This document shows, one piece after another, positions 1 through 11,861 of a DNA stretch of 11,861 nt. The first letter of the stretch is position 1; each line of letters begins with the position of its first letter. The notes below the pieces were generated by a model. The model made no database searches and was not told where the DNA came from. It saw only the letters and a program-made list of their open reading frames with translations. The position numbers and the translations under genes were made by a program. The DNA is from Elusimicrobiota bacterium (GTDB lineage: Bacteria; Elusimicrobiota; Endomicrobiia; CG1-02-37-114; JAHJSO01): positions 1 to 11,861 of the forward strand of contig JAHJSO010000195.1 of NCBI GenBank assembly GCA_018830385.1, read 5' to 3'.

Positions 1-46
1 CGCAATGACAAATCTCGCGGATGCGCAATGACAAATCCCGCGGATA
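1..46. repeat. Two-copy 23-bp tandem repeat at the window edge
   Basis: Bases 1-23 and 24-46 are near-identical copies with a core of cgcaatgacaaat followed by a cgcgg-containing tail. Internally they differ only at a t/c position (aatctcg versus aatcccg) and at the last base. The cgcaatgaca core resembles the ends of dispersed 'tcattgcgag' repeats known from many bacterial genomes, so this may be the end of a longer element or array outside the window. The rest of the leader up to nrdJ (47-181) is AT-rich. I see no gene, confident promoter or NrdR-like box in it. Confidence 0.75.
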
Positions 47-171
47 CTTAATGCGTTTGTATTAAGTGAAAATTTTGGGCAAAATAGTAACCGGCTGGAG
101 TGTTTTATTGATTGTTTTCAGTAACTTAATAATAAGGTCGGGAAGGCACTAACTGGTTAACGCATGCTTTT

Positions 172-177
172 GGGGGG
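172..177 (+). promoter_or_regulatory. Ribosome binding site that decides the nrdJ start
   Basis: A run of six G residues lies 4 nt before the ATG at 182. The alternative in-frame ATG at 164 has no Shine-Dalgarno-like sequence upstream, and the six residues it would add look unlike the family. The start at 182 is therefore preferred. Confidence 0.7.
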
Positions 178-181
178 AATT

Positions 182-2446
182 ATGGCTGTGCAATTATTGA
201 AAAATCTTAAACCGCAACTAACCCGGAATGCAATTAAGGTCCTTGAGAAGAGATATTTAAAAAAGGACGCCGATGGGAAGCCGGTGGAAACGCCCGAGGA
301 ACTTTTTTATAGAGTGGCGGAGAACATAGCCCGGGCGGATAAACTTTACGAACCGGACAAAGACATCGCCCCCGTTGTAGATGAGTTCTATACCGCGATG
401 GCGAAACTTGAGTTTATGCCGAATTCCCCGACGCTGATGAACGCAGGCAGGGAACTCCAGCAACTTTCCGCGTGTTTTGTCCTGCCGGTTGACGATTCAA
501 TGGAATCAATATTTGAAACACTCAAGTCAACCGCGCTTATACACAAATCAGGCGGCGGCACGGGTTTTTCATTTTCAAGATTAAGACCCAGGAACGACAT
601 TGTGCGTTCAACCAACGGCGTATCTTCCGGGCCCGTGTCCTTTATGGAGGTCTATAACATCGCGACCGAGGCGATAAAACAGGGAGGCGCCCGCCGGGGG
701 GCGAATATGGGTATGCTAAGGGTTGACCACCCCGACATTCTTGAGTTTATAGCATGCAAGAACTCAAACGAGGCGCTTTCAAACTTTAACATTTCCGTCG
801 CTCTTACGGAGGAATTCATGGAAGCGGTTGAGGAAGACGGGGAATATAACCTGAAGAATCCCAGGACGGGAGAACCCTGCGGAACACTCAGGGCAAAGAA
901 CGTATTTGACAGGATAATTGAACAGGCATGGAAGAACGGCGAGCCGGGAATCGTATTCCTTGACAGGATAAACGAGACGAACCCCACCCCCGCCCTCGGA
1001 GAGATTGAATCAACAAACCCGTGCGGTGAACAGCCGCTCCTGCCTTATGAGAGTTGTAACCTCGGTTCAATCAACCTCGCCAGGATGGTTACCGGCGGGA
1101 AAGAGGTTAACTACCCCCTGCTCGGCAGGACGGTGAAGACGGCGGTCCATTTTCTGGACAACGTCATTGATATGAACCTTTTTCCGATTCCGCAGATTGA
1201 AGAAATGACGAGGGGGAACAGGAAGATAGGGCTGGGTGTGATGGGCTGGGCGGACATGCTGATACAACTTGAAACATCCTATTGTTCGGCGGAGGCCATC
1301 CGGCTTGCAGAGAAGGTTATGGGTTTTATTCACAAAACGGCGAGGGAGGCGTCAATGGAACTCGCGCGCTCCCGCGGCCCGTTCCCGAATTTTTCAAAGA
1401 GCATCTATGCCCGGGGAGAACCGGTCAGGAATGCAACGGTAACGACGATAGCCCCGACGGGTTCAATCGGACTTATTGCCGGGTGCAGCGGCGGTATTGA
1501 GCCGCTGTTCGCGCTCGTTTATACCAGGGCAAACGTCCTTGACGGAGAAAAACTTAACGAGGTTAACCCTTATTTTGAGGAAACAGCACGGAGAGAAAAC
1601 TTTTATTCTGAAGAACTGATAAAGAAGGTGGCTGAAAAAGGGACAATCAGGGAGATAAAGGAAATCCCCGGCAATGTCCGGAGGATGTTCGTTACGGCGA
1701 TTGACATACCGCCGGACGTTCACGTAAGAATGCAGGCGACGTTCCAGAAATATGTGGACAACGCCGTTTCCAAGACGGTAAATTTTCCGGCTACCGCAAC
1801 AAGACAGGACGTCGCAGGGGTCTATCTGCTTGCCTACCAGCTCGGGTGCAAGGGTGTTACCGTGTACAGGGACAAAAGCAGGGAAAAACAGGTTTTGAAT
1901 ATAGGGGAGAATGAAAAGAAGTGTAACGAGAAAAAGCCGCGCCAGCGCCCGCAGGTAACCCGTGGTTCCACGCTCAGGATGAAGACGGGATGCGGCAAAA
2001 TGTACGTTACGATAAACGAAGACGAGTCGGGCATCTGCGAGGTTTTTTCTCAACTTGGTAAGACGGGGGGCTGTACTGCAAGCCAGGTTGAAGCGATAAG
2101 CCGGCTCATTTCGCTGGCGCTCAGGTGCGGGGTTGAGCACCAGAAAATTGTTTCACAACTTAAAGGGATAAGGTGTCCGACCCCGATGATTGTAGAAGGC
2201 ACGGCGGTTCTTTCCTGCGCCGATGCAATCGCCAAAGGGCTGGAACATTATCTCCAGGAAAAAGACATCCCCGGGCTTTTTAGCCCCGGCGCGCCGCACG
2301 AGCAGGGGCAGGAAGGGAATTATAACAGGACAAACAACCTGAAGTTTATCGGGGCCTGCCCGCAGTGTCCCGAATGCGGGGAGATGCTTATAATAAACGA
2401 GGGGTGCGTCCTGTGTAATAGTTGCGGGTATTCAAGGTGCTGGTAA
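182..2446 (+). CDS. nrdJ: Adenosylcobalamin-dependent (class II) ribonucleoside-diphosphate reductase
   Basis: This cytoplasmic enzyme reduces ribonucleotides to deoxyribonucleotides with a thiyl radical generated from coenzyme B12, with no oxygen requirement. Numbering from the ATG at 182 (754 aa), the barrel carries NSPTLMNAG (about 81-89), the first redox cysteine in LSACFVLPV (C98), STNPCGEQPLL with N279, radical cysteine C281 and E283, and the second redox cysteine C292 in ESCNLGSINL. The 11-residue spacing of C281 and C292 matches class II enzymes. APTGSIGLIAGCSGG (about 424-438) is the phosphate-binding segment, and LGCKGVTVYRDKSR ends the catalytic core. A TSCPD domain follows (about 594-690). 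The C-terminus is a zinc-ribbon or thiol-shuttle tail (CPQCPEC, then CVLCNSC, then a final CW). I see no N-terminal ATP-cone. A thymidylate synthase gene follows after 53 bp, giving a dNTP operon. Confidence 0.96.
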   Translation: MAVQLLKNLKPQLTRNAIKVLEKRYLKKDADGKPVETPEELFYRVAENIARADKLYEPDKDIAPVVDEFYTAMAKLEFMPNSPTLMNAGRELQQLSACFVLPVDDSMESIFETLKSTALIHKSGGGTGFSFSRLRPRNDIVRSTNGVSSGPVSFMEVYNIATEAIKQGGARRGANMGMLRVDHPDILEFIACKNSNEALSNFNISVALTEEFMEAVEEDGEYNLKNPRTGEPCGTLRAKNVFDRIIEQAWKNGEPGIVFLDRINETNPTPALGEIESTNPCGEQPLLPYESCNLGSINLARMVTGGKEVNYPLLGRTVKTAVHFLDNVIDMNLFPIPQIEEMTRGNRKIGLGVMGWADMLIQLETSYCSAEAIRLAEKVMGFIHKTAREASMELARSRGPFPNFSKSIYARGEPVRNATVTTIAPTGSIGLIAGCSGGIEPLFALVYTRANVLDGEKLNEVNPYFEETARRENFYSEELIKKVAEKGTIREIKEIPGNVRRMFVTAIDIPPDVHVRMQATFQKYVDNAVSKTVNFPATATRQDVAGVYLLAYQLGCKGVTVYRDKSREKQVLNIGENEKKCNEKKPRQRPQVTRGSTLRMKTGCGKMYVTINEDESGICEVFSQLGKTGGCTASQVEAISRLISLALRCGVEHQKIVSQLKGIRCPTPMIVEGTAVLSCADAIAKGLEHYLQEKDIPGLFSPGAPHEQGQEGNYNRTNNLKFIGACPQCPECGEMLIINEGCVLCNSCGYSRCW

Positions 2447-2499
2447 AGAAAGGCGACCCCCTGGCGACTCCTGTCGGACACTGGCGCAACGGAGCGTGA

Positions 2500-3279
2500 A
2501 TGATGATATTAAAACCCGTTTACATTGATGCTTTTGACGTTGACGATGCATGGTTTCAACTACTCTGTTCAATCCTGGAAAACGGTGCCGTATATAAGAT
2601 TGACCGGGGCAGTTATGAGGGACAGCGCCGCCTTGAGTTTGATTTTGTGACCGTGCGGATAAGGAACCCGAAACACCAGCCGATACCGCTCATACCCGAG
2701 GGAAGTTCAATCCCCGCTCCGACGAGCATGGAGTACGTCAACAGTTATCTCCCGTATCTTTTAAGCGGCGAAAAAACGGAGACCGAGGACTATACTTACG
2801 GCGAGCGGCTCGTTGACCCGAAGGTAAGGACGGGGCAGTTTAAGGAATTACCCCTGCAGGTTAACCAGATAGAAGAGGTAATAAAAATATACAAAACCCA
2901 GGGCTTCGGGACGAACCAGGCGGTTATGGAAATAGGAATGCCGTCGGATATAAAACTTGCTGACCCGCCGTGCCTGCGCCTGATAGATACGAGGATAAGG
3001 CACGACAAACTTCACTTTATCCTTTATTTCCGTTCGTGGGACCTGTGGGGAGGGTTTCCGTCAAACGTCGGGGGCTTGCAGAAGGTTAAGGAGTTTATGG
3101 CTGATGAAATCGGCGTCGGGGACGGCGAAATTATCGCTTGCAGTAAAGGGCTGCATCTTTACGAATATTGCTGGGAATGGGCAAAACTCAGGACACAAAG
3201 TTGGAGAATCTTGAAATCAGGTAGTTTAAAACCTGGATCCCCTGTCTATTTTTGCACAAACATTTTTAATTCTGTATAA
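2500..3279 (+). CDS. thyA: Thymidylate synthase, ThyA family (short archaeal-type)
   Basis: Probably methylates dUMP to dTMP using methylene-tetrahydrofolate. Landmarks of the ThyA/dCMP-hydroxymethylase superfamily appear in order: DYTYGERL (about 97-104, the YG.R motif), DPPC with nucleophile C158, the phosphate-binding Arg in YFRSWDLWGGFPSN (R178, D181, N189), and GLHLYEY (H219, Y221), which binds the nucleotide sugar. At 259 aa it is close to classical ThyA length, but the N-terminal half is divergent, as in the methanogen-type enzymes. About 26 residues after WAKLRTQ look unlike the family, so the tail may be a recent extension. GGAG at 2491-2494 serves the tandem ATGs at 2500 and 2503, so either may be the start. 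Position directly after nrdJ supports a role in dNTP synthesis. A related pyrimidine hydroxymethylase cannot be fully excluded. Confidence 0.82.
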   Translation: MMILKPVYIDAFDVDDAWFQLLCSILENGAVYKIDRGSYEGQRRLEFDFVTVRIRNPKHQPIPLIPEGSSIPAPTSMEYVNSYLPYLLSGEKTETEDYTYGERLVDPKVRTGQFKELPLQVNQIEEVIKIYKTQGFGTNQAVMEIGMPSDIKLADPPCLRLIDTRIRHDKLHFILYFRSWDLWGGFPSNVGGLQKVKEFMADEIGVGDGEIIACSKGLHLYEYCWEWAKLRTQSWRILKSGSLKPGSPVYFCTNIFNSV

Positions 3280-3331: not shown

Positions 3332-5290
3332 ATGAAATACATCATAATTTTGATTGCAATTTCCTTTGTCGTTTATTCAGGCATATTTCAGAATGAGTTT
3401 GTATGGGATGATATAGACCAGATTGTCCGTAATGATGCGATAAAGGACTGGGGCTACGCCCCGAAATACTTCACAACTGATTTGTGGAAGTTGACCGCCC
3501 GTAAAGGATCAAGCGGGTATTACCGTCCGTTTTTTCTTCTTACCCTCCTGGCAGAATACAAAATATTCGGTTTGCAGACATGGGGGTATCATCTGGTGAG
3601 CGTCCTGCTCCATGCTGCTTCGGCTGTCCTTTTGTATCTTTTGCTTTTAACCTGTTTTAAGGAAAGGTGGATTGCATTTTGCTCGTCTGTTTTTTTTATT
3701 GTATGCTCCGTGTCGTCGGAGGCAGTTGTTTTTATATCGGCGCAGTGTCATCCGTTAGGTCTTATGTTTTTTTTATTGACGATTATACTTTTTGCAAAAT
3801 ATAACAGAATGCATGAATTAGATGACTCACAAAATTCACAACCCTGTGTTGCTCGTCGGGCTAGATGTGACAGGGTGCATCTCTACTATCTTGCCAGTGT
3901 CCTATCTTGTTTATTTGCCCTGTTTTCAAAGGAAATGACAATAACCCTGCCGGCTATTCTGTTGCTCTATGATTATTTTTTTATTCCATCACGGGCTGGC
4001 GCGGGTGCAGAACCCAAAGAGAATATACTCCGCTGGGCCGGCCGCCGGCTGAAATATCACCTGCCGTATATCGCCGTGACAATTGTTTATCTTGTCCTCA
4101 GGTTTTCAGCGATGGGAGGTGTTCGGATAACCGGGGCAGGTGCCTCAGTCGCAAGATTTATTTCCGAACTGTATCCGCGTGTACTCACTGCCGTCACGGT
4201 TTACACCCACTATATTACAAAACTTATTTTCCCCACGGGGCTTTCCACCGTCTATAACTTTGAGGCGCCGAAAGGCCTCGCCGACTTGAAAGTCATTGCT
4301 TCAATGGTTATATTGCTTGTTATTATATTCCTGCTCGTTCGGGGCAGAAAAGAAAAGGCGCTTCTGTTCGGAGCCCTGTGGTTTTTCATAGCGCTCTTGC
4401 CCGCAAGCAATATTATCCCAATACCCGTAATGGTGGCGGACAGATACGCCTATATACCCTCAGCCGGTTTTTGCATAGTTGCCGGTTTTTTAATCAGCAG
4501 ATTTTATAAGTGGGGGGCTGTCCGCCCATCCCGTGTTTTAAAGACCAGCGTCCTGTTTATTTATATCGCCCTGATTTTGTTTCAGGGGGTGGGCACTTTC
4601 AGGAAAAATTCAACCTGGAAAACTGCAGAGTCCCTCTGGATCCGCACCCTGAGTATATTCCCGTCATCCGCCGTCGCATGGAATAACCTCGGGTCTGCCT
4701 ATTCTGATAAAGGCATGCTGGACGAGGCAACAGACGCCTATAAAAAGGCAATTCACTACAACCCGAATTTTATTGAGCCATACACAAACCTTGCCAACGC
4801 ATACAGTCAGAAAGGCATAGTGGATGAGGCATTTGAATATTATGCGGCTGCATTGAAACTCAAGCCCGATTCCGCCAATATACACAACAACCTCGGATTG
4901 ATATATGAGCAAAAGGGCGACCCTGCCCGTGCAATTGAAGAATACAAACAGGCGATAGACGCTGAACCATCCTACTGGCAGGCATACAACAATCTCGGCA
5001 AGGTATATGCTTTGATGAAAAAATACAACGAAGCAGCCGACTGGTTTAAAAAAGCAATTGGTATTGCCACAGGCGGACCTCACGGCAATATTTCCGAGCC
5101 ATATATAAATCTGGGGGGTGTCTATATTGAGACCAAACAATATGATAAAGCAATCATTGAATTACAAAAAGCAATAGAAATTGACCCGAACAGCAGGGAG
5201 GGGCTCACCAATATCGGTATTGCATATTTACGCAAAGGAGACAAAAGTAAAGCAACGGAGATATTCAATAGATTACAGAATCCGCAGTGA
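3332..5290 (+). CDS. TMTC-like GT-C membrane glycosyltransferase with C-terminal TPR repeats
   Basis: This 652-aa polytopic membrane protein has a GT-C-type N-terminal half. After the first membrane helix comes FVWDDIDQI (D26, D27), the acidic motif in the first periplasmic loop, then YYRP (63-66). About nine further hydrophobic segments run to roughly residue 420. NIIPIPVMVADRYAYIPS (about 360-377) matches the hallmark DRYxYxPS motif of TMTC proteins, which are protein O-mannosyltransferases in animals. Residues about 446-650 are five to six TPRs (446-479, 480-513, 514-547, 548-581, 588-621 and a last partial), expected to recruit an acceptor or partner. I infer transfer of a sugar from a polyprenyl-phosphate donor at the outer face of the cytoplasmic membrane. 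Donor and acceptor are unknown. A hydrophilic stretch at 162-181 looks inserted. No other start codon lies nearby in frame. Confidence 0.85.
   Translation: MKYIIILIAISFVVYSGIFQNEFVWDDIDQIVRNDAIKDWGYAPKYFTTDLWKLTARKGSSGYYRPFFLLTLLAEYKIFGLQTWGYHLVSVLLHAASAVLLYLLLLTCFKERWIAFCSSVFFIVCSVSSEAVVFISAQCHPLGLMFFLLTIILFAKYNRMHELDDSQNSQPCVARRARCDRVHLYYLASVLSCLFALFSKEMTITLPAILLLYDYFFIPSRAGAGAEPKENILRWAGRRLKYHLPYIAVTIVYLVLRFSAMGGVRITGAGASVARFISELYPRVLTAVTVYTHYITKLIFPTGLSTVYNFEAPKGLADLKVIASMVILLVIIFLLVRGRKEKALLFGALWFFIALLPASNIIPIPVMVADRYAYIPSAGFCIVAGFLISRFYKWGAVRPSRVLKTSVLFIYIALILFQGVGTFRKNSTWKTAESLWIRTLSIFPSSAVAWNNLGSAYSDKGMLDEATDAYKKAIHYNPNFIEPYTNLANAYSQKGIVDEAFEYYAAALKLKPDSANIHNNLGLIYEQKGDPARAIEEYKQAIDAEPSYWQAYNNLGKVYALMKKYNEAADWFKKAIGIATGGPHGNISEPYINLGGVYIETKQYDKAIIELQKAIEIDPNSREGLTNIGIAYLRKGDKSKATEIFNRLQNPQ
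3841..3876. repeat. Short inverted repeat inside the TMTC-like gene
   Basis: ACCCTGT (3841-3847) and ACAGGGT (3870-3876) are perfect inverted copies around a 22-bp centre. They sit in the stretch encoding the hydrophilic loop at residues 162-181, which interrupts otherwise hydrophobic sequence. This could be the scar of a small palindromic insertion or chance. Confidence 0.4.
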
Positions 5291-5381
5291 ACCTGGAAAC
5301 ATTGAACCCCGCAAGGATGTGTTAAAATTTGAGTGGTGTATTTAGGTGTGTATGTTTTTAAAAATTATTTTGTTGGGGGGA

Positions 5382-5410
5382 TTGACAAAATCCTTAATTT
5401 TTTAGATAAT
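5382..5410 (+). promoter_or_regulatory. Strong sigma70-type promoter
   Basis: TTGACA (5382-5387), a perfect -35, and GATAAT (5405-5410) are 17 bp apart in AT-rich sequence. This is the best promoter in the window. The predicted transcript starts near 5417 and has a leader of about 139 nt before the secreted-protein gene at 5556. A second TATAAT lies at 5452-5457 but has no matching -35. The 265-bp gap between the flanking genes contains no clear terminator for the upstream gene. Confidence 0.75.
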
Positions 5411-5417
5411 ATGTATA

Positions 5418-5434
5418 GAAGTTATAAAAACTTC
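5418..5434 (+). promoter_or_regulatory. 5' stem-loop at the predicted transcription start
   Basis: GAAGTT (5418-5423) pairs with AACTTC (5429-5434) around a 5-nt loop. Because the promoter -10 ends at 5410, this hairpin would lie at the very 5' end of the transcript, a position where stem-loops are known to protect mRNA from decay. Confidence 0.45.
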
Positions 5435-5497
5435 ATTTCTGATAGATAAACTATAATGGGCAAAGTGGAGGTGATGGAGGTTTTTAGCCGAATAAAA

Positions 5498-5520
5498 TTT
5501 TCTGATATTATATCAGGAAA
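5498..5520 (+). promoter_or_regulatory. Leader hairpin upstream of the secreted-protein gene
   Basis: A stem of 10 pairs including one G-U (5498-5507 with 5511-5520, core CTGATA/TATCAG) closes a 3-nt loop. It lies 20 nt before the ribosome binding site of the gene at 5556. It is followed by A-rich rather than U-rich sequence, so it does not look like an intrinsic terminator on this strand. On the opposite strand it would end in a U-tract. Confidence 0.4.
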
Positions 5521-5555
5521 AAAGGTCGACAAAAATAAAAAGGGGGCAACTGTTT

Positions 5556-5960
5556 ATGAAACAGATATTTCAAAAGTTGTTTGTTATCTCACTAGTTGTA
5601 ATTCAAGGAATAGGAATTTGTAGTGTTTCGCTGGGCTACGATGGTCATATAAATCCTCCTGAATACTGGACTGGCTATGCCCATTTGTATGTAACATCTG
5701 ACCCTGTTGGGTTACTTACTTATTGGGGGCCAGGTGCGCCAGAACCAACCCAACATGATGTAACACCGACGCGCGGGGTTACTACTGCTTCTCCTGAGCG
5801 TCAGAGAGAATGGGGCTGGGCAGTGCATGTTTATTATCCTGAAGATGGTTGGTGGTACAGGAAAGAAGTTATAGCTGATATTGGCAAAACAACTCCTGTA
5901 CATTTTGATTTTAAAGGTCGCTCTGGGCATGGGGAAAGGTCTAAACAAGGACTAAAGTAG
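5556..5960 (+). CDS. Small secreted protein with PEGA-like domain
   Basis: I do not recognise this 134-aa protein as a named gene. The N-terminus is a typical Sec signal peptide: lysines at 2 and 7, then a hydrophobic core LFVISLVVIQGIGI (about 8-21), with probable cleavage near VSLG (24-27). There is no lipobox, so it should be soluble in the periplasm or exported. The mature part (about 100 aa) resembles a single PEGA domain: YAHLYVTSDPVG (41-52), a TPTRG turn (70-74), then VHVYYPEDGWWYRKEV (90-105) and a closing VHFDF strand. PEGA domains are surface-associated beta-sandwich modules. The middle is rich in Thr, Ser and Pro (68-80), a possible O-glycosylation segment. AGGGGG at 5541-5546 is a good ribosome binding site. 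Its own strong promoter suggests high expression. The basic tail after residue 120 is short. Confidence 0.7.
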   Translation: MKQIFQKLFVISLVVIQGIGICSVSLGYDGHINPPEYWTGYAHLYVTSDPVGLLTYWGPGAPEPTQHDVTPTRGVTTASPERQREWGWAVHVYYPEDGWWYRKEVIADIGKTTPVHFDFKGRSGHGERSKQGLK

Positions 5961-5975
5961 TTTTATTTTGTTATA

Positions 5976-6097
5976 TTGGGCCTATTTAAACATAAACAAT
6001 CTGTTGGTTAGAGACATATAAAATATTAATTACAGTCAAAAGGATAATTTTTGAAACAATTTTCTCTAACTTTAACAATGTTATTAAATAGGCTCAA
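5976..6097. repeat. 122-bp imperfect palindrome (large hairpin or MITE-like element)
   Basis: Outer arms TTGGGCCTATTTAA (5976-5989) and TTAAATAGGCTCAA (6084-6097) are inverted copies with one mismatch. Further in, GTTAGAGA (6007-6014) and TCTCTAAC (6063-6070) are perfect inverted copies. Between them aaca/tgtt segments also pair when a 4-nt gap is allowed, giving arms of about 35-39 bp around an AT-rich centre of about 48 bp. It fills most of the 176-bp gap between the secreted-protein gene and the GT39-like gene. No ORF is present. TTTATTTTG-like sequence occurs on both sides, but in AT-rich DNA this is weak evidence of a target duplication. It may instead act as a transcript-processing or attenuating hairpin. 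Confidence 0.6.
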
Positions 6098-6136
6098 TTT
6101 ATTTTTGAAAACTAATTTCCCTGTAACTTTTGCTAT

Positions 6137-8473
6137 ATGAAATATAGAAATTATATTGTCCTTTCATTGTTATTGTTTATGTGGGTTCGTATAATTCTTA
6201 CAATCAGCGCTATTTCAGAAACATATGACGAACCCAGATACTTGAAAACAGCACAGAGATTGAGTGAAAAGGGACAATGGGAGACGGAAACAGATGTTCT
6301 CCACCCACCATTGTCACATTATCTCTATGGGTTTCCTCTGAAAATATTAGCCCCCAAAAATTTTGAGAATCAACTTTTTATCGCACGGCTCATTATGAGT
6401 GTGTTCTCTTTGATTTTGGGTTTTTTTATCTTCCGGGTAGCAGAAAACATAGGCGGACTAAAGACCGCTGTGCCTTCTCTTTTATTATATACTTTCTCAC
6501 CTGCAATAATTGCGAATTCCTGCTTTATTGCAACCGACATATTGCTCACCTGTTTTTTATTTCTGTCTGTCCATTATTTTGGAGACATGTTAGATACCCA
6601 TCTCCCAAAAGACCCTGTCCAATCACACGGGGGGGGGCGTTCTGGTCGGTATATAACATCCCTCGGACTATCAGGTATTCTAACAGGAATGGTTCTGCTT
6701 TCAAAATATAATGGTGTTTTTGTATTTCCAATTTATTTTTTGTTGGGTGTTATCAAAGTAATATTCCCGAGCAAGGGAATATTACCGGACGGAGGCAATT
6801 GCGGCAAAAAAGGCGTGGTTATTAGATTTTGGGGGTTCATGAAAATATTTTTAATTGTTTCAATAATAGGGATTTTTATTTTGAATCTGGGATATAAATT
6901 TACAGGAACGGGGTCAGCCCTGGCAAATTATCCCTTCCGAAGTAAAATTCTTGCGGCCATGTCACAGGTGCCGGTCTTATCCCGACTGCCCATGCCAGTT
7001 CCTTCCCCATATCTTTATGGTTTTGACATTCAAAAATATCCTACAGAGGTCGGGCATCCGTCATACCTGATGGGACAAAGAAGCACAAAGGGCTGGTGGT
7101 ATTATCCTATAGTTGCTTTTTTAATTAAGACACCGATATCTTTTTTGTGTCTGTTGTTCCTCTCTCTTGTTCTATTTGTCTTTGAAATTAAAAAGATGTG
7201 TTCGCGCTCTGCGGTGTTTTTGCTCGGATTTTTGCTCATAATAGTTGCGTTGTGCATACCATTTGTTTTCTCTAAAAGCAGTCAGGTCGGACGCTTCCTT
7301 TTACCTGTATATCCATTTCTTTTTGTTTTCGTCGGCACTCTGTTTAGTACAAACAAAAGAGTCCTTCGCGGCATCAGTTATTCATTCCTGTTTTTGTTTT
7401 TACTTGAGAGTGTCTCAATCCATCCCAATTATCTTGCATATTTCAATCAGTTAATCGGAGGACCACGCAATGGTTATAAATATTTAGCCGATGCCAATCT
7501 TGACTGGGGACAAAATCAAAAAATATTTTTAAAATTCAGGAAAAAATGCATCAGAGAGAAAATCGAGGTGAAAGTAAATCCTGAATGGCCAACAGAAGGA
7601 AAAGTCCTTGTAAATGCCAACAACCTCGTGGATTGTTTCAGGGTAAGAGAAAGATATGAATGGCTCAGGAAATTTAACCCCGTGGACAATATGGGCTTTA
7701 CCTGGTTATTATATGATATAAAACTCGCTGAACTTGAAGATAAAATTAACGAACATACTGATGACCCAAACATCTATTATGTGGCAAGTTTTATATATAG
7801 AGAAAAAAAGGACTACATCAAAACAGAAAACACCCTAAAAAAAGCAATCTCTATTGAATTGAAGTCAAGCGATAGAGATAACTTATTTCTTGCTAAGTGT
7901 TATTATTTAATGGGCTTTATGTATTTAGACACCAGAGATTTTCTACAGGCAAAAAAGTCATTTGAAAAGGTCATTGAGGCATATCCGTTTTTTTATGAGG
8001 CGTTCGCAAAGTTATCACAAATTTATGACCTATCTGGGAATAAAAAGATTGCAAAAGAATATTCAAAAAAAGAAAAGGTCTATAAAATTTTAGACGCGTA
8101 TGCTATTAAACCACCAACGGATAAAAAATTCTACATGAATAAGTTGAAGGTTAACCCCCGTGACCCAAAATTGTATAACAACCTCGGATTTGTCCACTGG
8201 ATGAATAATAACATTGACGCTGCAATTGAAAATTTCAACAAAGCCCTGAAACTTGACCCGAAATTGAATTATGTGTATGGAAATCTGGCGGTGGCTCACT
8301 ATGAAAAAAACGATTTTGATGAGATGTCAGGGTATCTTAAAATCTATTATGACAGGAGAGAAAAACTTGGATACAGGAACACTTATGCGATATGGTATAA
8401 CGGGGACTTAATCATAATGGAAGACAACATATTAGCAGTCCTACCGGAGGAGTATTTCAATAGAAAAGAATAA
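6137..8473 (+). CDS. ArnT/PMT (GT39)-like membrane glycosyltransferase with TPR region
   Basis: This 778-aa polytopic membrane protein is built like polyprenyl-phosphate-dependent glycosyltransferases. The first loop has ETYDEPRYL (D31, E32, the GT-C acidic pair) and HPPLSHYL (56-63). ATD (132-134) lies in a later loop. GQVGRFLLPVYPF-like sequence (SSQVGRFLLPVYPF, about 381-394) and HPNYLAYFNQLIGGPRNGY (429-447) followed by LADANLDWGQ (450-459) are typical of this family. About ten hydrophobic segments precede residue 425. A soluble region with TPR-like pairs follows (about 545-725; the best copies are 585-617 and 676-709). No Shine-Dalgarno site precedes the ATG. The next ATG in frame is at 6179. 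It probably forms an operon with the gene 4 bp downstream. An in-frame G9 tract encodes Gly165-167. Donor sugar and acceptor are unknown. Confidence 0.85.
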   Translation: MKYRNYIVLSLLLFMWVRIILTISAISETYDEPRYLKTAQRLSEKGQWETETDVLHPPLSHYLYGFPLKILAPKNFENQLFIARLIMSVFSLILGFFIFRVAENIGGLKTAVPSLLLYTFSPAIIANSCFIATDILLTCFLFLSVHYFGDMLDTHLPKDPVQSHGGGRSGRYITSLGLSGILTGMVLLSKYNGVFVFPIYFLLGVIKVIFPSKGILPDGGNCGKKGVVIRFWGFMKIFLIVSIIGIFILNLGYKFTGTGSALANYPFRSKILAAMSQVPVLSRLPMPVPSPYLYGFDIQKYPTEVGHPSYLMGQRSTKGWWYYPIVAFLIKTPISFLCLLFLSLVLFVFEIKKMCSRSAVFLLGFLLIIVALCIPFVFSKSSQVGRFLLPVYPFLFVFVGTLFSTNKRVLRGISYSFLFLFLLESVSIHPNYLAYFNQLIGGPRNGYKYLADANLDWGQNQKIFLKFRKKCIREKIEVKVNPEWPTEGKVLVNANNLVDCFRVRERYEWLRKFNPVDNMGFTWLLYDIKLAELEDKINEHTDDPNIYYVASFIYREKKDYIKTENTLKKAISIELKSSDRDNLFLAKCYYLMGFMYLDTRDFLQAKKSFEKVIEAYPFFYEAFAKLSQIYDLSGNKKIAKEYSKKEKVYKILDAYAIKPPTDKKFYMNKLKVNPRDPKLYNNLGFVHWMNNNIDAAIENFNKALKLDPKLNYVYGNLAVAHYEKNDFDEMSGYLKIYYDRREKLGYRNTYAIWYNGDLIIMEDNILAVLPEEYFNRKE
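6629..6637 (+). repeat. G9 homopolymer inside the GT39-like coding region
   Basis: Nine consecutive G residues encode three glycine codons (Gly165-167) in a hydrophilic loop near residues 155-171. Tracts of this length in surface-glycosylation genes often change length by slipped-strand mispairing. Gain or loss of one G would shift the frame and truncate the protein before most of its membrane segments. Confidence 0.8.
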
Positions 8474-8477
8474 AATT

Positions 8478-10829
8478 ATGGCGTTTTTTATTTTTGTATT
8501 ACTTTTTGGAATTTATCTCCGAACAGCGCCGCCGACAATAGTCGCCTATCGGGATTCATCCGAACTGATTGCTTCCGCGGCCACTCTGGGTATAGCACAC
8601 CCGTCGGGCTATCCGCTCTATGTTATTTTAGGTAAAATTTTTACCAATATAATTCCCTTTGGCAATATAGCGTATAGAATAAACATTATGTCCGTAGTGT
8701 TTTCAGGGTTGACTATTGTTCTGCTATATTATGCTATACTTTTGGTGCTTGCACAACAGGCGGCATATTGGACAAAAGCAATATCCCCAGGAGCACACTC
8801 AAACGCCCCCCAAAACGCTCCCTCAATCACACCACCAAACGCACCACATAGTGTGTCTGAAGACCTGCTATTTGAGCACCGACTAGCCGCTATTTTTTCC
8901 GTTTTATTTCTTTCATTCAATCCGGTTTTCTGGAATCTTTCTCTGGTAGCGGAAATGTACACACTCAACTCATTTTTGACAATTTTGCTAATACTGGTGG
9001 TGTTATCGTGGCATTTAAGGACATCGGCAGGGACGCCAACATCTTCTGTCCATCTCTATTTATTCTGTTTTATATTCGGAGTTGGTCTCGGCAATCACCT
9101 TACTCTGTTGTTTTTATTACCCGGTGTCGTTTATTTAATATTAAAAACACTCCGCGGGGTGTCCACATTTTTTTCGCGACCCAACGGACAACAAATAGCA
9201 GTCGCCTCATTATTTTTTCTACTGGGATTGTCAATATATCTATACCTGCCAATAAGGTCATATCAGCAGCCGGTAATTAACTGGGGAAGCCCCCATAATT
9301 TTACAAATTTTATAGAGGTAATAACACGAAAAAACATAGGTGCCTTTCAATTGACTATTGAGGCGGCACCATTTCAATTTTCACTGGAGCAACTTATTAG
9401 ACAATCCCTTGTTTTTTTCAACTCTACGGTGCAACACTTTACAATTATTGGCTTTCTCCTCGGATTGTTCGGTCTTATGTTTTTTATATTCAAAAGGCAA
9501 GGGCATATTACCTTGTTTTTTCTCCTGATATTTTTATTTTCTGGAATTGGTTTTTTAGTCCTGGCAGGGCAACCGACCGACGACCAACATGCCCAGGCGA
9601 TATTAGAACCATATTATCTCCTGCCCGGTATTATATTTTCAATATGGCTTGGTATTGGAATAGTTGGTATAAAAAGATTGTTTGCCACGCCTTCAAAAAT
9701 CTTTTCTTATTTTGTGATTTTGATTTTATTGTTCGCACTACTTTTTCAGTTTAAATCGGTCTTTTACAAAGTCAACAAACGCAACCATTTTTTCGCTTAT
9801 GATTATGGTTTAAACTTTTTCAGAACGATTGACAAAAATGCTATTGTCATAACCCATGGCGACACACCACTTTTTACAAGTTGGTATTTTCAGAGGGTGC
9901 TGAAAAAACGGCAGGATATCAATATCTTCTCTGAGGGACTTCGTTTTGCTAAATGGTATATTCAGCAAAAAAGCAAAGATATGCCGGCAGATGTAAAAAG
10001 TTTTATTGCCCTGCCCCGAGTTGACCCGGCGAGGGAACTGATAGTGGGCTATCTCAACGGCTATTTTAAATCATCCGGTTTTTCACTGTATGCCAACTCT
10101 CTGCTTACATTCCCCGGTTATATCATTGACCGTTCCCATCCATTCAGGGGGATTGTTTTTGGTTTTTCTCCGGAGCCCGAAAGTGTATCAGCCCATACAA
10201 TTCAAGAGAACTTAAAATTTTGGGATATCTACATAATGCGCGGCATATATGAACAAAGACCCGAGAAAAGATTCGCACCGGGACCCAATGGGAAAAGCCC
10301 CGCTGAAAAACACCCCCCACGGCACCCGAGGGATTTTTTTATATCAGAAATAACAAATGCGTATTCTTCCGCACACGGTGCCCATGGATTTCTTTTATAC
10401 AACAGAAAACTTTACAATGAGGCAATAGAGCAGTTTTGGGAATCAATAATAATAGAGCCACAGAATATAAAGGGATGGACCGACCTTGGCAGTGTGTATT
10501 ACACGATTGGGGACTACCCCCGTGCAATACAGTTATATAAATATGCTCTGAGTATGTATCCTGATAATGATGAGGTTTATTACAATCTTGGCAGGGTATA
10601 TGAGAAAATTGGCTCAAAGGCGATTGCAATTGAAAATTATACCCGGGCGATTAACATCAACCCCAGGTGTGTAAAATCATACAACAATTTAGGTGTGATT
10701 TATTACAATAAAGGAATGTATGAAAAAGCACTATCATACTGGAAGTCAGCGATTGATATTGCCCCTGATTTTGCAGATGCGAGGCGAAATTATGAAATCT
10801 GCCTGAAAAAAATGGATGCTATCCGATGA
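8478..10829 (+). CDS. DUF2723/TMEM260-like membrane protein with C-terminal TPR repeats
   Basis: This 783-aa protein begins with the DUF2723 signature: YLRTAPPTIVAYRDSSELI (13-31, with D26 and E29), then LGIAHPSGYPLYVILGKIF (37-55). Further family features are AEMYTLN (159-165), GLGNHLTLL (203-211) and YLYLPIRSYQQPVINWGSP (254-272). About ten hydrophobic segments run to residue 425. A soluble domain (about 430-620) precedes three to four TPRs (about 630-770; clear copies at 664-697, 698-731 and 732-765). TMEM260, the human member of this group, is a protein O-mannosyltransferase, so a glycosyltransferase role at the outer membrane face is inferred. Two low-complexity hydrophilic insertions, 100-128 (repeated NAP) and 592-617 (Pro/Lys/Arg-rich), look added to the family core. 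It starts 4 bp after the upstream stop with only a weak ribosome binding site. The frame stays open upstream, so a rare start codon a little earlier is possible. Confidence 0.85.
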   Translation: MAFFIFVLLFGIYLRTAPPTIVAYRDSSELIASAATLGIAHPSGYPLYVILGKIFTNIIPFGNIAYRINIMSVVFSGLTIVLLYYAILLVLAQQAAYWTKAISPGAHSNAPQNAPSITPPNAPHSVSEDLLFEHRLAAIFSVLFLSFNPVFWNLSLVAEMYTLNSFLTILLILVVLSWHLRTSAGTPTSSVHLYLFCFIFGVGLGNHLTLLFLLPGVVYLILKTLRGVSTFFSRPNGQQIAVASLFFLLGLSIYLYLPIRSYQQPVINWGSPHNFTNFIEVITRKNIGAFQLTIEAAPFQFSLEQLIRQSLVFFNSTVQHFTIIGFLLGLFGLMFFIFKRQGHITLFFLLIFLFSGIGFLVLAGQPTDDQHAQAILEPYYLLPGIIFSIWLGIGIVGIKRLFATPSKIFSYFVILILLFALLFQFKSVFYKVNKRNHFFAYDYGLNFFRTIDKNAIVITHGDTPLFTSWYFQRVLKKRQDINIFSEGLRFAKWYIQQKSKDMPADVKSFIALPRVDPARELIVGYLNGYFKSSGFSLYANSLLTFPGYIIDRSHPFRGIVFGFSPEPESVSAHTIQENLKFWDIYIMRGIYEQRPEKRFAPGPNGKSPAEKHPPRHPRDFFISEITNAYSSAHGAHGFLLYNRKLYNEAIEQFWESIIIEPQNIKGWTDLGSVYYTIGDYPRAIQLYKYALSMYPDNDEVYYNLGRVYEKIGSKAIAIENYTRAININPRCVKSYNNLGVIYYNKGMYEKALSYWKSAIDIAPDFADARRNYEICLKKMDAIR

Positions 10830-10832
10830 GCC

Positions 10833-10880
10833 CTGCCACTACCCGCTAAATTCTGCCACACTACCCGCTAAATTCTGCCA
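10833..10880. repeat. Tandem repeat between convergent genes
   Basis: A 20-bp unit and a 22-bp unit, both reading ctgccac...ctacccgctaaatt with two bases added in the second, are followed by a partial third copy (ctgcca). They occupy most of the 65-bp gap between the DUF2723-like gene and the convergent minus-strand gene. No terminator-like stem with a U-tract is visible in the gap. Confidence 0.8.
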
Positions 10881-10894
10881 GAAAAGGTTACTTA

Positions 10895-11861
10895 CTATTC
10901 ATTGAGACCTGATTTGAGACCCGGCTTGTGTTCCAATTTTTTTATAGACAGCAGAAAATATTTCCTTGCCACTTTATTTTCAGGGTTAATATCAAGTGCT
11001 TTTTTGTACATTTCAACCGCCTGAATATAATCTCCTTCTAAATAATGGACATATCCCAGGTTTGTGAATAGTTCACTGTTTTGTGGGTCAAACCGCAAGG
11101 CACTTTCATACACTTCCAGAGCGGTCTTATATTGATTTTTTTTCACATATGCAACACCCATGTTTATGTAGGAATGCACAAAACCCTCGTTTAAAAGAAT
11201 CGCTTTTTTGTATGATTCTATTGCTTTGTCGTATTCGGCGGTGTGTAGATAGGTATTACCTATATTGTAATAGATTTCCCATCCCTCAGGATTATTCTTT
11301 AATCCCTTTTTATATATTTCCAGTGCTTCTTTGAATTTACCTGTGTCTTTGTATATGGTGCCGATTCCGAGATAACTGTCTATCTGAAATGGGTTTATAT
11401 CTAATGCGCGGTTATACGCCGATAGCGATTCTTCGTACCTTCCGAGAAGCGAGTGGACATCTCCGAGAGAGGTGTAAGCACTTACGAAATTCGGGTCGGT
11501 CAGCAGTGCATTTTTGTAAAATTCAATTGACTTATTGTAGTTTCCTTCTTTGAGATACAAATACCCCGAGTTTAAATATGCCACAGCAAAATTGCCTTTT
11601 AGCAGAGGGAGATTAACAAAGAGCCCCGCCAGAATTAACCCCGTTAGGTACACAGGAATCTTCCAGGAATTTTTATTTGCACTTACGGCGGGGAGTATGT
11701 TATTCCTTAGGTATTCTATAAACGAAACAATTGTATAAGCACAAAAGATAATTATCACAGGGACCACTGGCAGACGGTATTCAGAGGCAGCAAAGAATAA
11801 AAGCGCCGTCAGGATATTTGCTATAATAAAACTATAGATGAGACCTCTCCTGCCCGATTTA
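10895..11861 (-). CDS. C-terminal part of a membrane protein with TPR repeats, cut by the window edge
   Basis: The minus-strand frame is open from the right edge, and 321 residues are visible. A GTG at 11767 could be read as a start. However, the 31 residues before it are uninterrupted, form a hydrophobic helix and end in ASEYRLPVVPV, which resembles the conserved R.RLP..P segment late in GT39/PMT-like membrane domains. I therefore read this as the tail of a longer glycosyltransferase-like protein starting beyond the window. A second membrane helix (about 41-56 counted from the GTG) is followed by six TPRs of 34 residues (61-94, 95-128, 129-162, 163-196, 197-230, 231-264) and a capping helix with a Lys-rich end. 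The gene converges on the DUF2723-like gene. The nature of its catalytic module cannot be judged here. Confidence 0.8.
   Translation of the reverse strand, partial: KSGRRGLIYSFIIANILTALLFFAASEYRLPVVPVIIIFCAYTIVSFIEYLRNNILPAVSANKNSWKIPVYLTGLILAGLFVNLPLLKGNFAVAYLNSGYLYLKEGNYNKSIEFYKNALLTDPNFVSAYTSLGDVHSLLGRYEESLSAYNRALDINPFQIDSYLGIGTIYKDTGKFKEALEIYKKGLKNNPEGWEIYYNIGNTYLHTAEYDKAIESYKKAILLNEGFVHSYINMGVAYVKKNQYKTALEVYESALRFDPQNSELFTNLGYVHYLEGDYIQAVEMYKKALDINPENKVARKYFLLSIKKLEHKPGLKSGLNE

What the first reader, a model, noticed from the sequence alone, without database searches (positions are those of the whole stretch)
3332..11861. Array of different GT-C modules, each fused to TPRs, including TMTC-like and TMEM260-like types side by side
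Three complete genes and one partial gene share the same plan, a polytopic membrane domain followed by TPRs. Their membrane domains belong to different groups: DRYAYIPS marks TMTC, HPPL plus LADANLDWGQ marks GT39/ArnT-like, and RDSSEL plus HPSGYPLYV marks DUF2723. TMTC and TMEM260 are the two eukaryotic families known to O-mannosylate cadherins and plexins respectively. Finding both relatives in one bacterial cluster with a secreted protein suggests an undescribed protein or surface O-glycosylation locus in which TPRs choose acceptors.
Basis: partly seen in the sequence, partly recalled or inferred. Interest (0 to 1): 0.72.

Follow-up and report, generated by a model that had tools for sequence, protein, structure and literature searches.

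The report
Bacterial TMEM260-like sugar transferases with TPRs
An uncultured Elusimicrobia bacterium carries a row of membrane sugar-transferring enzymes with protein-binding tails, one clearly related to the human protein-mannosylating enzyme TMEM260, and in its relatives such enzymes tend to sit in one conserved envelope gene cluster that could show what bacteria use them for.

Summary
Three complete genes (A 3332-5290, C 6137-8473, D 8478-10829) have a polytopic N-terminal domain and C-terminal TPRs; a fourth (E), cut by the contig end, shows the C-terminal half of that plan. D is a TMEM260-family protein (PF11028 120.8 bits, cut-off 24.2; human TMEM260, PDB 9rql, E 3e-29). C is PMT-clan (GT39-like). 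A is only TMTC-like: several TMTC features were tested and not met. The reading is partly right. TMTC beside TMEM260 is not conserved (2 of 13 genomes, window included; about 1.7 expected). The C-D neighbourhood is: 13 of 14 genomes with a C relative, window included, have one within 6 kb of a TMEM260 gene (about 0.5 expected). In 14 of 16 TMEM260-bearing genomes at least one copy lies within 10 kb of DUF4159, in a repeated locus: MoxR, DUF58, vWA, DUF4159, vWA/GATase, TMEM260, GT39-like, sometimes ArnC-like GT2, MGDG-synthase-like, DUF4175. The window pair is an outlying copy. Most likely these are extracytoplasmic, lipid-sugar-dependent transferases that glycosylate envelope proteins; acceptor and sugar are unproven and a glycolipid role stays open.

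The parts
3332..5290 (+). ORF A: TMTC-like GT-C module (residues 1-430) followed by at least five TPRs (447-620)
   Evidence: TPR_1 7.3e-42, five stretches; D26 D27 invariant; weak PF08409 on its homologues; motif test, 22 rows; AlphaFold pLDDT 85.0, pTM 0.81
5556..5960 (+). 134-aa secreted-looking protein, one N-terminal hydrophobic segment (residues 8-26); function unknown
   Evidence: no Pfam match at E<=1; no relative in fetched loci beyond one weak E=0.02 match in L028
6137..8473 (+). ORF C: PMT-clan (GT39-like) GT-C module with DE motif (D31 E32), then TPRs (matches between about 551 and 729)
   Evidence: PMT, PMT_2, Glyco_transf_22 over cut-off on the GT-C part; D31, E32, D456 W457 G458 invariant in 17 rows
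8478..10829 (+). ORF D: TMEM260-family GT-C module (YRDSSELI, D26 and E29) with C-terminal TPRs (about 656-770); starts 4 bases after ORF C ends
   Evidence: PF11028 7.4e-35; human TMEM260 9rql 3.2e-29; family profile to 9rql 5.5e-84; 20 of 20 rows have PF11028 and TPRs
10895..11860 (-). ORF E: C-terminal part of another membrane-plus-TPR protein, cut by the contig end; membrane type not identified
   Evidence: (TPR_1 9.8e-53)
164..2446 (+). B12-dependent ribonucleotide reductase (neighbour, not part of the array)
   Evidence: (NF006417 1195.6 bits, cut-off 961)
2500..3279 (+). thymidylate synthase relative (neighbour); ORF A starts 52 bases downstream
   Evidence: PF00303 36.2 bits, cut-off 24.3; TIGR03283 104.8 bits, below its cut-off 174.55

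Best explanation
A, C and D are inner-membrane GT-C transferases that take a sugar from a polyprenyl-phosphate donor on the outer face of the membrane; their C-terminal TPRs lie in the periplasm and dock protein partners or acceptors. D works like human TMEM260 and C like a PMT. The two are adjacent genes, act as a pair and most likely glycosylate envelope proteins. The pair is an outlying copy of a neighbourhood that in this class of Elusimicrobia usually lies in a MoxR/DUF58/vWA/DUF4159/DUF4175 envelope locus, so the likeliest acceptors are extracytoplasmic vWA or Ig-like proteins of that kind rather than the 134-aa neighbour. A is a distant TMTC-like enzyme that is next to the pair by chance. 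Shown: domains, conserved loop acids, recurrence of the TMEM260-GT39 neighbourhood, presence of donor-synthase-like GT2 genes. Inferred: topology, activity, sugar (mannose or other), protein acceptor, TPR role.
For: Family tests for C and D. First-loop acids conserved. A C relative within 6 kb of a TMEM260 gene in 13 of 14 genomes, window included; a rough upper bound for scatter is 0.51. DUF4159 present in 15 of 16 TMEM260-positive and 1 of 43 TMEM260-negative genomes, and on the same contig within 10 kb in 14 of the 15 with both. The own genome has DUF4159 and two TMEM260 genes together (C251). Donor synthases: a GT2 gene of the locus (G002) matches ArnC over nearly its full length (2e-42), and the own genome has a GT2 whose best PDB match is dolichol-phosphate-mannose synthase (3.6e-21). 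Published proposal that TPRs of TMTC and TMEM260 recruit Ig-like acceptors (PMC11292533).
Against: No acceptor or sugar is shown. TIG/IPT domains, the human TMEM260 acceptor fold, have no match in the own genome (79% complete) or in the five f5 genomes, which all have TMEM260 and DUF4159. The locus also has an MGDG-synthase-like gene, which fits glycolipid work. The window pair is not in the conserved locus, and D branches apart from the locus copies in the tree. Much of the presence/absence signal is one family (f4, 40 genomes) lacking both; without it p is 0.05. The link is not general: of 14 control genomes PF11028 rings only in Bacteroides ihuae and DUF4159 only in Caulobacter, and two named TMEM260-bearing outsiders show no gene of the locus core in the 8.7 and 12 kb fetched around their copies.
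Confidence: 0.5

Rival explanations
1. The GT-C enzymes build or decorate an envelope glycolipid or surface polysaccharide: the MGDG-synthase-like enzyme makes a glycosylated lipid on the inner leaflet, and the GT39-like and TMEM260-like enzymes add further sugars from polyprenyl-phosphate donors on the outer leaflet; TPRs hold the complex together.
For: MGDG-synthase-like gene next to the GT39-like gene in the locus (best NCBIfam match diglucosyl diacylglycerol synthase, 145.2 bits against a cut-off of 500); ArnC-like GT2 in the locus of some genomes; ORF C also scores over cut-off for Glyco_transf_22; in another lineage TMEM260-TPR genes are next to a Wzy_C (O-antigen ligase) TPR gene (L158); ArnT, a GT-C enzyme, acts on a lipid (recalled).
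Against: The human member of D's family acts on proteins (PMC11292533), and the locus core (MoxR, DUF58, vWA) is not a known glycolipid pathway (recalled); none of the genes found in the window is a lipid glycosyltransferase by the family scans.
Confidence: 0.3
2. The side-by-side A, C, D and E genes are a real single TMTC/TMEM260 O-glycosylation locus, with the 134-aa secreted protein as substrate.
For: A, the small gene, C and D lie on one strand with gaps of 4 to 265 bases, and A, C and D have TPRs; one relative (G048:C24) also has a TMTC-like gene 9.3 kb from TMEM260 genes.
Against: 2 of 13 genomes with both families, window included, against about 1.74 expected; the secreted protein has no clear relative in the fetched loci; base composition changes along the window.
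Confidence: 0.12
3. The GT-C modules are no longer enzymes; TPR-bearing membrane scaffolds remain.
For: ORF A has QxH where 19 (R) and 18 (D) of 22 rows keep RxD, and VY in the place of the TMTC DW.
Against: The first acid of the outer loop is invariant in all three families, and the frames are open for 650-780 codons.
Confidence: 0.08

Closest known systems
TMEM260 (CAZy GT117), human protein O-mannosyltransferase
   Same: Sequence homology over the GT-C part (E 3.2e-29 single sequence, 5.5e-84 profile), DSxE loop, C-terminal TPRs (TPRs of TMEM260 per PMC11292533)
   Different: Bacterial, several copies per genome, near a GT39-like gene and often inside a MoxR/vWA/DUF4159 locus; acceptor and sugar unknown; no TIG match in the own genome
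TMTC1-4 (CAZy GT105), cadherin O-mannosyltransferases
   Same: Plan of ORF A (membrane part then TPRs), DD in the first outer loop, KE..T, RxxY
   Different: No PF08409 match; RxD, DW and PxxP not kept, and of SHKSYRP only S..(S)YRP in part: S, Y, R, P agree
PMT / ArnT-like GT-C enzymes (GT39, GT83)
   Same: ORF C passes PMT and PMT_2 cut-offs on its GT-C part and has the DE motif
   Different: TPR tail; also passes Glyco_transf_22, so the exact CAZy family is open
MoxR AAA+ ATPase with vWA proteins, including the predicted archaeal surface/secretion system with Ig-like vWA proteins (PMC5898192, passages read)
   Same: MoxR plus vWA and membrane partners
   Different: Here the locus carries TMEM260, GT39-like and sometimes ArnC-like genes; it is not in the window but elsewhere in the same genome (part of it, C251) and in relatives

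Membership tests
TMEM260 (GT117) | PF11028 above its curated cut-off | tested here: met
   ORF D 120.8 bits against 24.2; 20 of 20 aligned rows match at E<=0.001
TMEM260 (GT117) | Homology to the solved human TMEM260 across the GT-C domain | tested here: met
   9rql, E 3.2e-29, stretches 5-91 and 141-504; profile E 5.5e-84
TMEM260 (GT117) | Acids in the first outer loop (DSxE as in the human sequence) | tested here: met
   Window DSSE against human DSGE; D26 invariant in 20 rows; the second acid is E or D in relatives
TMEM260 (GT117) | C-terminal TPRs | tested here: met
TMEM260 (GT117) | O-mannosylates IPT/TIG Ig-like domains | not testable with these tools
   Activity cannot be tested. As a hint, PF01833 has no match in the own genome and matches in 7 of 16 TMEM260-positive and 3 of 43 other genomes
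TMTC (GT105) | PF08409 (TMTC_DUF1736) match | tested here: not met
   No match in the own genome at E<=0.01, 0 of 59 genomes over the cut-off; of 5 weak matches 3 lie inside ORF A homologues and 1 beside a broken one
TMTC (GT105) | M1 DD in EL1 | tested here: met
   D26 D27, 22 of 22 rows; motif list from PMC7801869
TMTC (GT105) | M2 SHKSYRP in EL1 | tested here: not met
   Window has SSGYYRP: S, Y, R, P agree, H, K and the second S do not
TMTC (GT105) | M3 RxD in EL2 | tested here: not met
   Window Q138 and H140; the family has R in 19 and D in 18 of 22 rows
TMTC (GT105) | M4 KE(T/Q)xxT in EL3 | tested here: met
   K200, E201 and T205 present, with M in the T/Q place
TMTC (GT105) | M5 DW in EL4 | tested here: not met
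   Window V307 Y308; D in 9 of 22 rows, W in none
TMTC (GT105) | M6 PxxP in TM9 | tested here: not met
   P357 present (22 of 22), but residue 354 is A
TMTC (GT105) | M7 ERxxY in EL5 | tested here: met
   DRYAY: D for E, R371 and Y374 kept
TMTC (GT105) | GT-C fold of the membrane part | tested here: inconclusive
   Good model, but the rows shown by both structure searches were TPR matches; profile comparison to the C family 95.0% over 102 columns and to the D family 96.5% over 135
PMT / GT39-like (ORF C) | PF02366 or PF13231 above cut-off | tested here: met
   31.6 against 22.7 and 30.4 against 26.1 on the GT-C part; on the whole protein PMT 30.6, PMT_2 26.0, just under
PMT / GT39-like (ORF C) | Exclusive match to that family | tested here: not met
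   Glyco_transf_22 also 29.9 against 23.8
PMT / GT39-like (ORF C) | MIR domain of eukaryotic PMTs (recalled feature) | tested here: not met
   No MIR family among the 16 matches at E<=0.01

The most novel reading that the evidence does not exclude
Elusimicrobia have an undescribed envelope system in which TMEM260-type transferases, paired with a GT39-like enzyme and fed by an ArnC-like donor synthase, O-glycosylate extracytoplasmic vWA and Ig-like proteins run by a MoxR ATPase: a bacterial forerunner or counterpart of the domain-specific O-mannosylation of Ig-like folds in animals. The window pair C-D is a second, relocated set with TPRs on both partners.
Probability: 0.25. Interest if true: 0.8.

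Novelty: new variant of a known kind. Interest (0 to 1): 0.5.

Why it matters
How the TPRs of TMEM260-type enzymes pick their acceptors is open (PMC11292533). A bacterial system with several TMEM260-TPR genes in a repeated gene neighbourhood narrows the candidate acceptors and donor enzyme to a handful of genes and offers small systems for testing TPR-guided glycosylation. It also gives the MoxR/DUF58/vWA/DUF4159 locus a possible biochemical output.

Tried and rejected
ORF A as a TMTC family member: rejected as membership, kept as resemblance. Sequence and profile searches of the PDB with A's membrane part gave no GT-C entry; C's membrane part alone likewise. Whole-protein profiles of A and C were swamped by TPRs (60 rows shown of 502 and 99). 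ORF C folded alone gave a useless model (pLDDT 38.9) and was not searched. TIG as the general acceptor: association p 0.0024 over 59 genomes but 0.26 without family f4, and no TIG match in the own genome. The 134-aa protein as acceptor: no support. Promoter-like sites are about background (35 found, shuffles 26.8 sd 6.5); terminator-like sites exceed it (16, shuffles 8.7 sd 3.0), but I drew no operon limits from them. tRNA scan: none. RNR identity as a lineage marker was replaced by an exact contig match. Alignments used 22 of 29 (A1), 20 of 28 (A2) and 17 of 20 (A3) sequences, counting the window and the frames extracted (two further A loci, L045 and L049, were not extracted); chosen by hand for completeness and spread. 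The tree took the window and 23 rows picked by a motif pattern from the fetched loci; TMEM260 copies that missed the pattern were left out and not counted, so only D's position apart from the locus copies is used. The clustering lumps TMEM260, TMTC-like and ORF E into one group through their TPRs, so families were told apart. The 'expected by scatter' figures are a simple formula (numbers of hits, window size, genome size), not a shuffle, and include the window genome among the observed cases.
Full report
What is there. The window is a whole contig (G000:C144) of a 1.23-Mb, 255-contig, 79% complete genome. It encodes a B12-dependent ribonucleotide reductase, a thymidylate synthase relative, ORF A, a 134-aa secreted-looking protein, ORF C, ORF D and, convergent, the cut ORF E. 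Gaps are 52 bases (thymidylate synthase to A), 265 (A to the small gene), 176 (small gene to C) and 4 (C to D), so C and D are very probably one transcript (inference). G+C is 48-53% in 1-kb windows up to about 3000, then 34-49%, mostly 36-42%.

Lineage. One of the relatives that the tool puts in the same order as the window genome, G004, is the named record of Elusimicrobia bacterium RIFOXYB2_FULL_48_7: its contig C182 equals MGVM01000182.1 letter for letter and its contig C166 is identical through both handles. The window therefore belongs to the Elusimicrobia by the tool's kinship.

Domains. TPRs score over cut-off in A, C, D and E. D matches PF11028 (TMEM260-like) at 120.8 bits against 24.2, and human TMEM260 (PDB 9rql) at E 3.2e-29 with one sequence and 5.5e-84 with a profile of 20 rows. 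C matches PMT, PMT_2 and Glyco_transf_22 over cut-off on its GT-C part. A's membrane part matches no relevant Pfam family and no GT-C entry of the PDB by sequence. Its relatives give weak links: of five sub-threshold PF08409 matches in 59 genomes three lie inside ORF A homologues and one beside a broken one; a homologue in L130 has a sub-threshold PMT_2 match at 6.1e-4; the A profile aligns with the C profile over 102 columns at 95.0% and with the D profile over 135 at 96.5%. Against the seven TMTC motifs of PMC7801869 (abstract and passages read), M1, M4 and M7 are kept, and M3, M5, M6 and the HKS core of M2 are not. So A is TMTC-like, not filed as TMTC. The AlphaFold model of A (10 sequences, pLDDT 85.0, pTM 0.81) shows many helices of membrane length, a first loop of about 60 residues made of short helices, and then helical hairpins in the TPR region, as expected of a GT-C plus TPR protein, but the structure searches showed only TPR matches. 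Loop acids: DD invariant in A's alignment, DE in C's, D26 in D's with E or D three residues on.

How common it is. The own genome has 4 TMEM260-like matches over cut-off, 11 PMT_2 matches over cut-off (two in one frame, and one on a TMEM260-like gene) and 2 TMTC-like genes. TMEM260-TPR is the usual architecture: 20 of 20 rows have both domains, and the human enzyme is described with TPRs as well (PMC11292533). TMTC-like proteins occur in records named Omnitrophota, Elusimicrobia, Nitrospirae, Deltaproteobacteria, Geobacter and Woesearchaeota; of the 10 loci found one (L139) is only a TPR match and one (L138) a short frame. The fusions as such are ordinary.

Is the set conserved? Over 59 related genomes, the own one included, 33 have an A relative, 14 a C relative and 16 a D relative. 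A and D relatives lie within 15 kb in 2 of the 13 genomes with both (the window and G048); scatter would give about 1.74. C and D relatives lie within 6 kb in 13 of the 14 genomes with a C relative, window included; scatter would give at most about 0.51; the exception, G003, has no D relative. A neighbouring pair with TPRs on both partners was seen in one other place among those I scanned, G024:C8, with the order reversed between genes that I read as smc and wecG. The other two close C relatives, G003:C77 and G002:C68, have no TMEM260 match on their contigs.

The conserved home. Fetching the neighbourhoods and clustering the ORFs gave one repeated order, annotated by Pfam on single representatives: MoxR ATPase (AAA_3), DUF58, vWA protein, DUF4159, vWA/GATase1-like protein, one to three TMEM260 genes, GT39-like gene (the C family, without TPRs in the copy scanned), an ArnC-like GT2 in five genomes (one of them, G003, without TMEM260), MGDG-synthase-like gene, DUF4175, peptidase-MA with TPRs. 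Not every locus has every gene. DUF4159 is found in 16 of 59 genomes, TMEM260 in 16, both in 15 (Fisher 6e-12; without family f4, whose 40 genomes have neither, p 0.05). In 14 of those 15 the two lie on the same contig: 2.2-3.4 kb apart in 12 and 9.4-9.8 kb in 2; in G037 they are on different contigs; G003 has the locus without TMEM260, and G041 has TMEM260 without a DUF4159 match. Further TMEM260 copies lie elsewhere in several genomes. The own genome has DUF4159, vWA/GATase and two TMEM260 genes on contig C251, cut at the contig end. D of the window is not one of these: in a tree of 24 rows it is a long branch outside the locus copies, in one half of the tree. Outside the class the picture differs: among 14 control genomes PF11028 rings only in Bacteroides ihuae and DUF4159 only in Caulobacter; of 8 genomes behind named records 3 have TMEM260, one of them being G004. 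Of the other two, an unclassified bacterium (CSMAG_2684) has TMEM260 genes beside a Wzy_C-TPR gene (L158), and a Geobacter record has a TMEM260-like gene without TPR matches (L159); neither fetched stretch holds a relative of the MoxR, DUF58, vWA or DUF4159 genes.

Donor and acceptor. The locus GT2 from G002 matches ArnC over residues 3-301 of 314 (2e-42); PF00535 in 4 of 4 scanned of the five. The own genome has 10 Glycos_transf_2 matches; the best PDB match of L140 and of L146 is dolichol-phosphate-mannose synthase (3.6e-21 and 3.2e-16). This makes a polyprenyl-phosphate-sugar donor plausible, not shown. TIG domains match in 10 of 59 genomes, in 7 of 16 with TMEM260, and not in the own genome. 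A weak Big_7 (Ig-like) match under cut-off lies in one of three DUF4175 proteins scanned. The secreted 134-aa protein has no Pfam match and no clear relative in the fetched loci.

How it most likely works. GT-C enzymes have the catalytic loop on the outer face, and TMTCs are modelled with 11 helices and the C-terminus on the same side (PMC6801728 and PMC7801869, passages read), so the TPRs should lie in the periplasm (inference). D and C would then transfer sugars from lipid-phosphate donors to envelope proteins docked on their TPRs, as proposed for the human enzymes (PMC11292533). The MoxR/vWA neighbourhood suggests vWA or Ig-like envelope proteins as acceptors; in archaea MoxR and Ig-like vWA proteins were predicted to form a secretion-related surface system (PMC5898192, passages read). 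The glycolipid rival is live because of the MGDG-synthase-like gene.

In print? Searches of the held library found no paper with DUF2723, none with DUF4159, none with Elusimicrobiota, glycosylation and TPR together, none with Bacteroidota, O-glycosylation and O-mannosyltransferase together, and one with Omnitrophota, tetratricopeptide and glycosyltransferase, seen in the listing only. Broader searches listed TMTC/TMEM260 papers about eukaryotes in the main (5 papers; 12; 20 shown of 35; 15 shown of 218), of which I read passages of PMC11292533, PMC7801869 and PMC6801728. Five papers hold at least three of MoxR, von Willebrand, glycosyltransferase, Elusimicrobi; I read passages of two, which do not describe this locus; the other three were seen in the listing only. 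The library holds open-licence papers only, so this is no proof of novelty.

Verdict. Observation confirmed; interpretation partly supported. The TMTC/TMEM260 juxtaposition is probably chance; the TMEM260-GT39 neighbourhood and its home in a MoxR/vWA/DUF4159 locus are the part worth following.

Noticed in passing
L158 2195-8666 (G059:C21, record of bacterium isolate CSMAG_2684): A Wzy_C (O-antigen ligase) TPR gene, a TMEM260-TPR gene and a third TPR gene with a weak, cut TMEM260 match in tandem; the small genes beside them begin like type II secretion pseudopilins (my reading of the N-termini).
   Followed up: partly
L131 2819-5940 (Candidatus Omnitrophota CSMAG_2666): A TMTC-like TPR gene directly behind a PMT_2 GT-C gene.
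   Followed up: partly
window 1-3000 against 5000-10500: G+C falls from about 52% in the reductase/thymidylate synthase genes to about 38% in the GT-C genes, which may mean a different origin of the GT-C block.
   Followed up: no
L116 4674-7676 and L114 10489-13422 (G037, G057): Large secreted proteins of one group, the L116 copy reading like a subtilase with a C-terminal sorting-like domain, next to tandem TMEM260 genes; possible acceptors.
   Followed up: no
G009:C9 about 2186-3008: A TMTC-like stretch with several stop codons inside, probably a pseudogene.
   Followed up: no
window 2500-3279: Thymidylate synthase relative closest to the methanogen-type model TIGR03283 but under its cut-off.
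   Followed up: no
G004:C17: Open frame of 1512 aa with seven TIG matches in the Elusimicrobia relative RIFOXYB2_FULL_48_7, a natural candidate acceptor for TMEM260-type enzymes.
   Followed up: no
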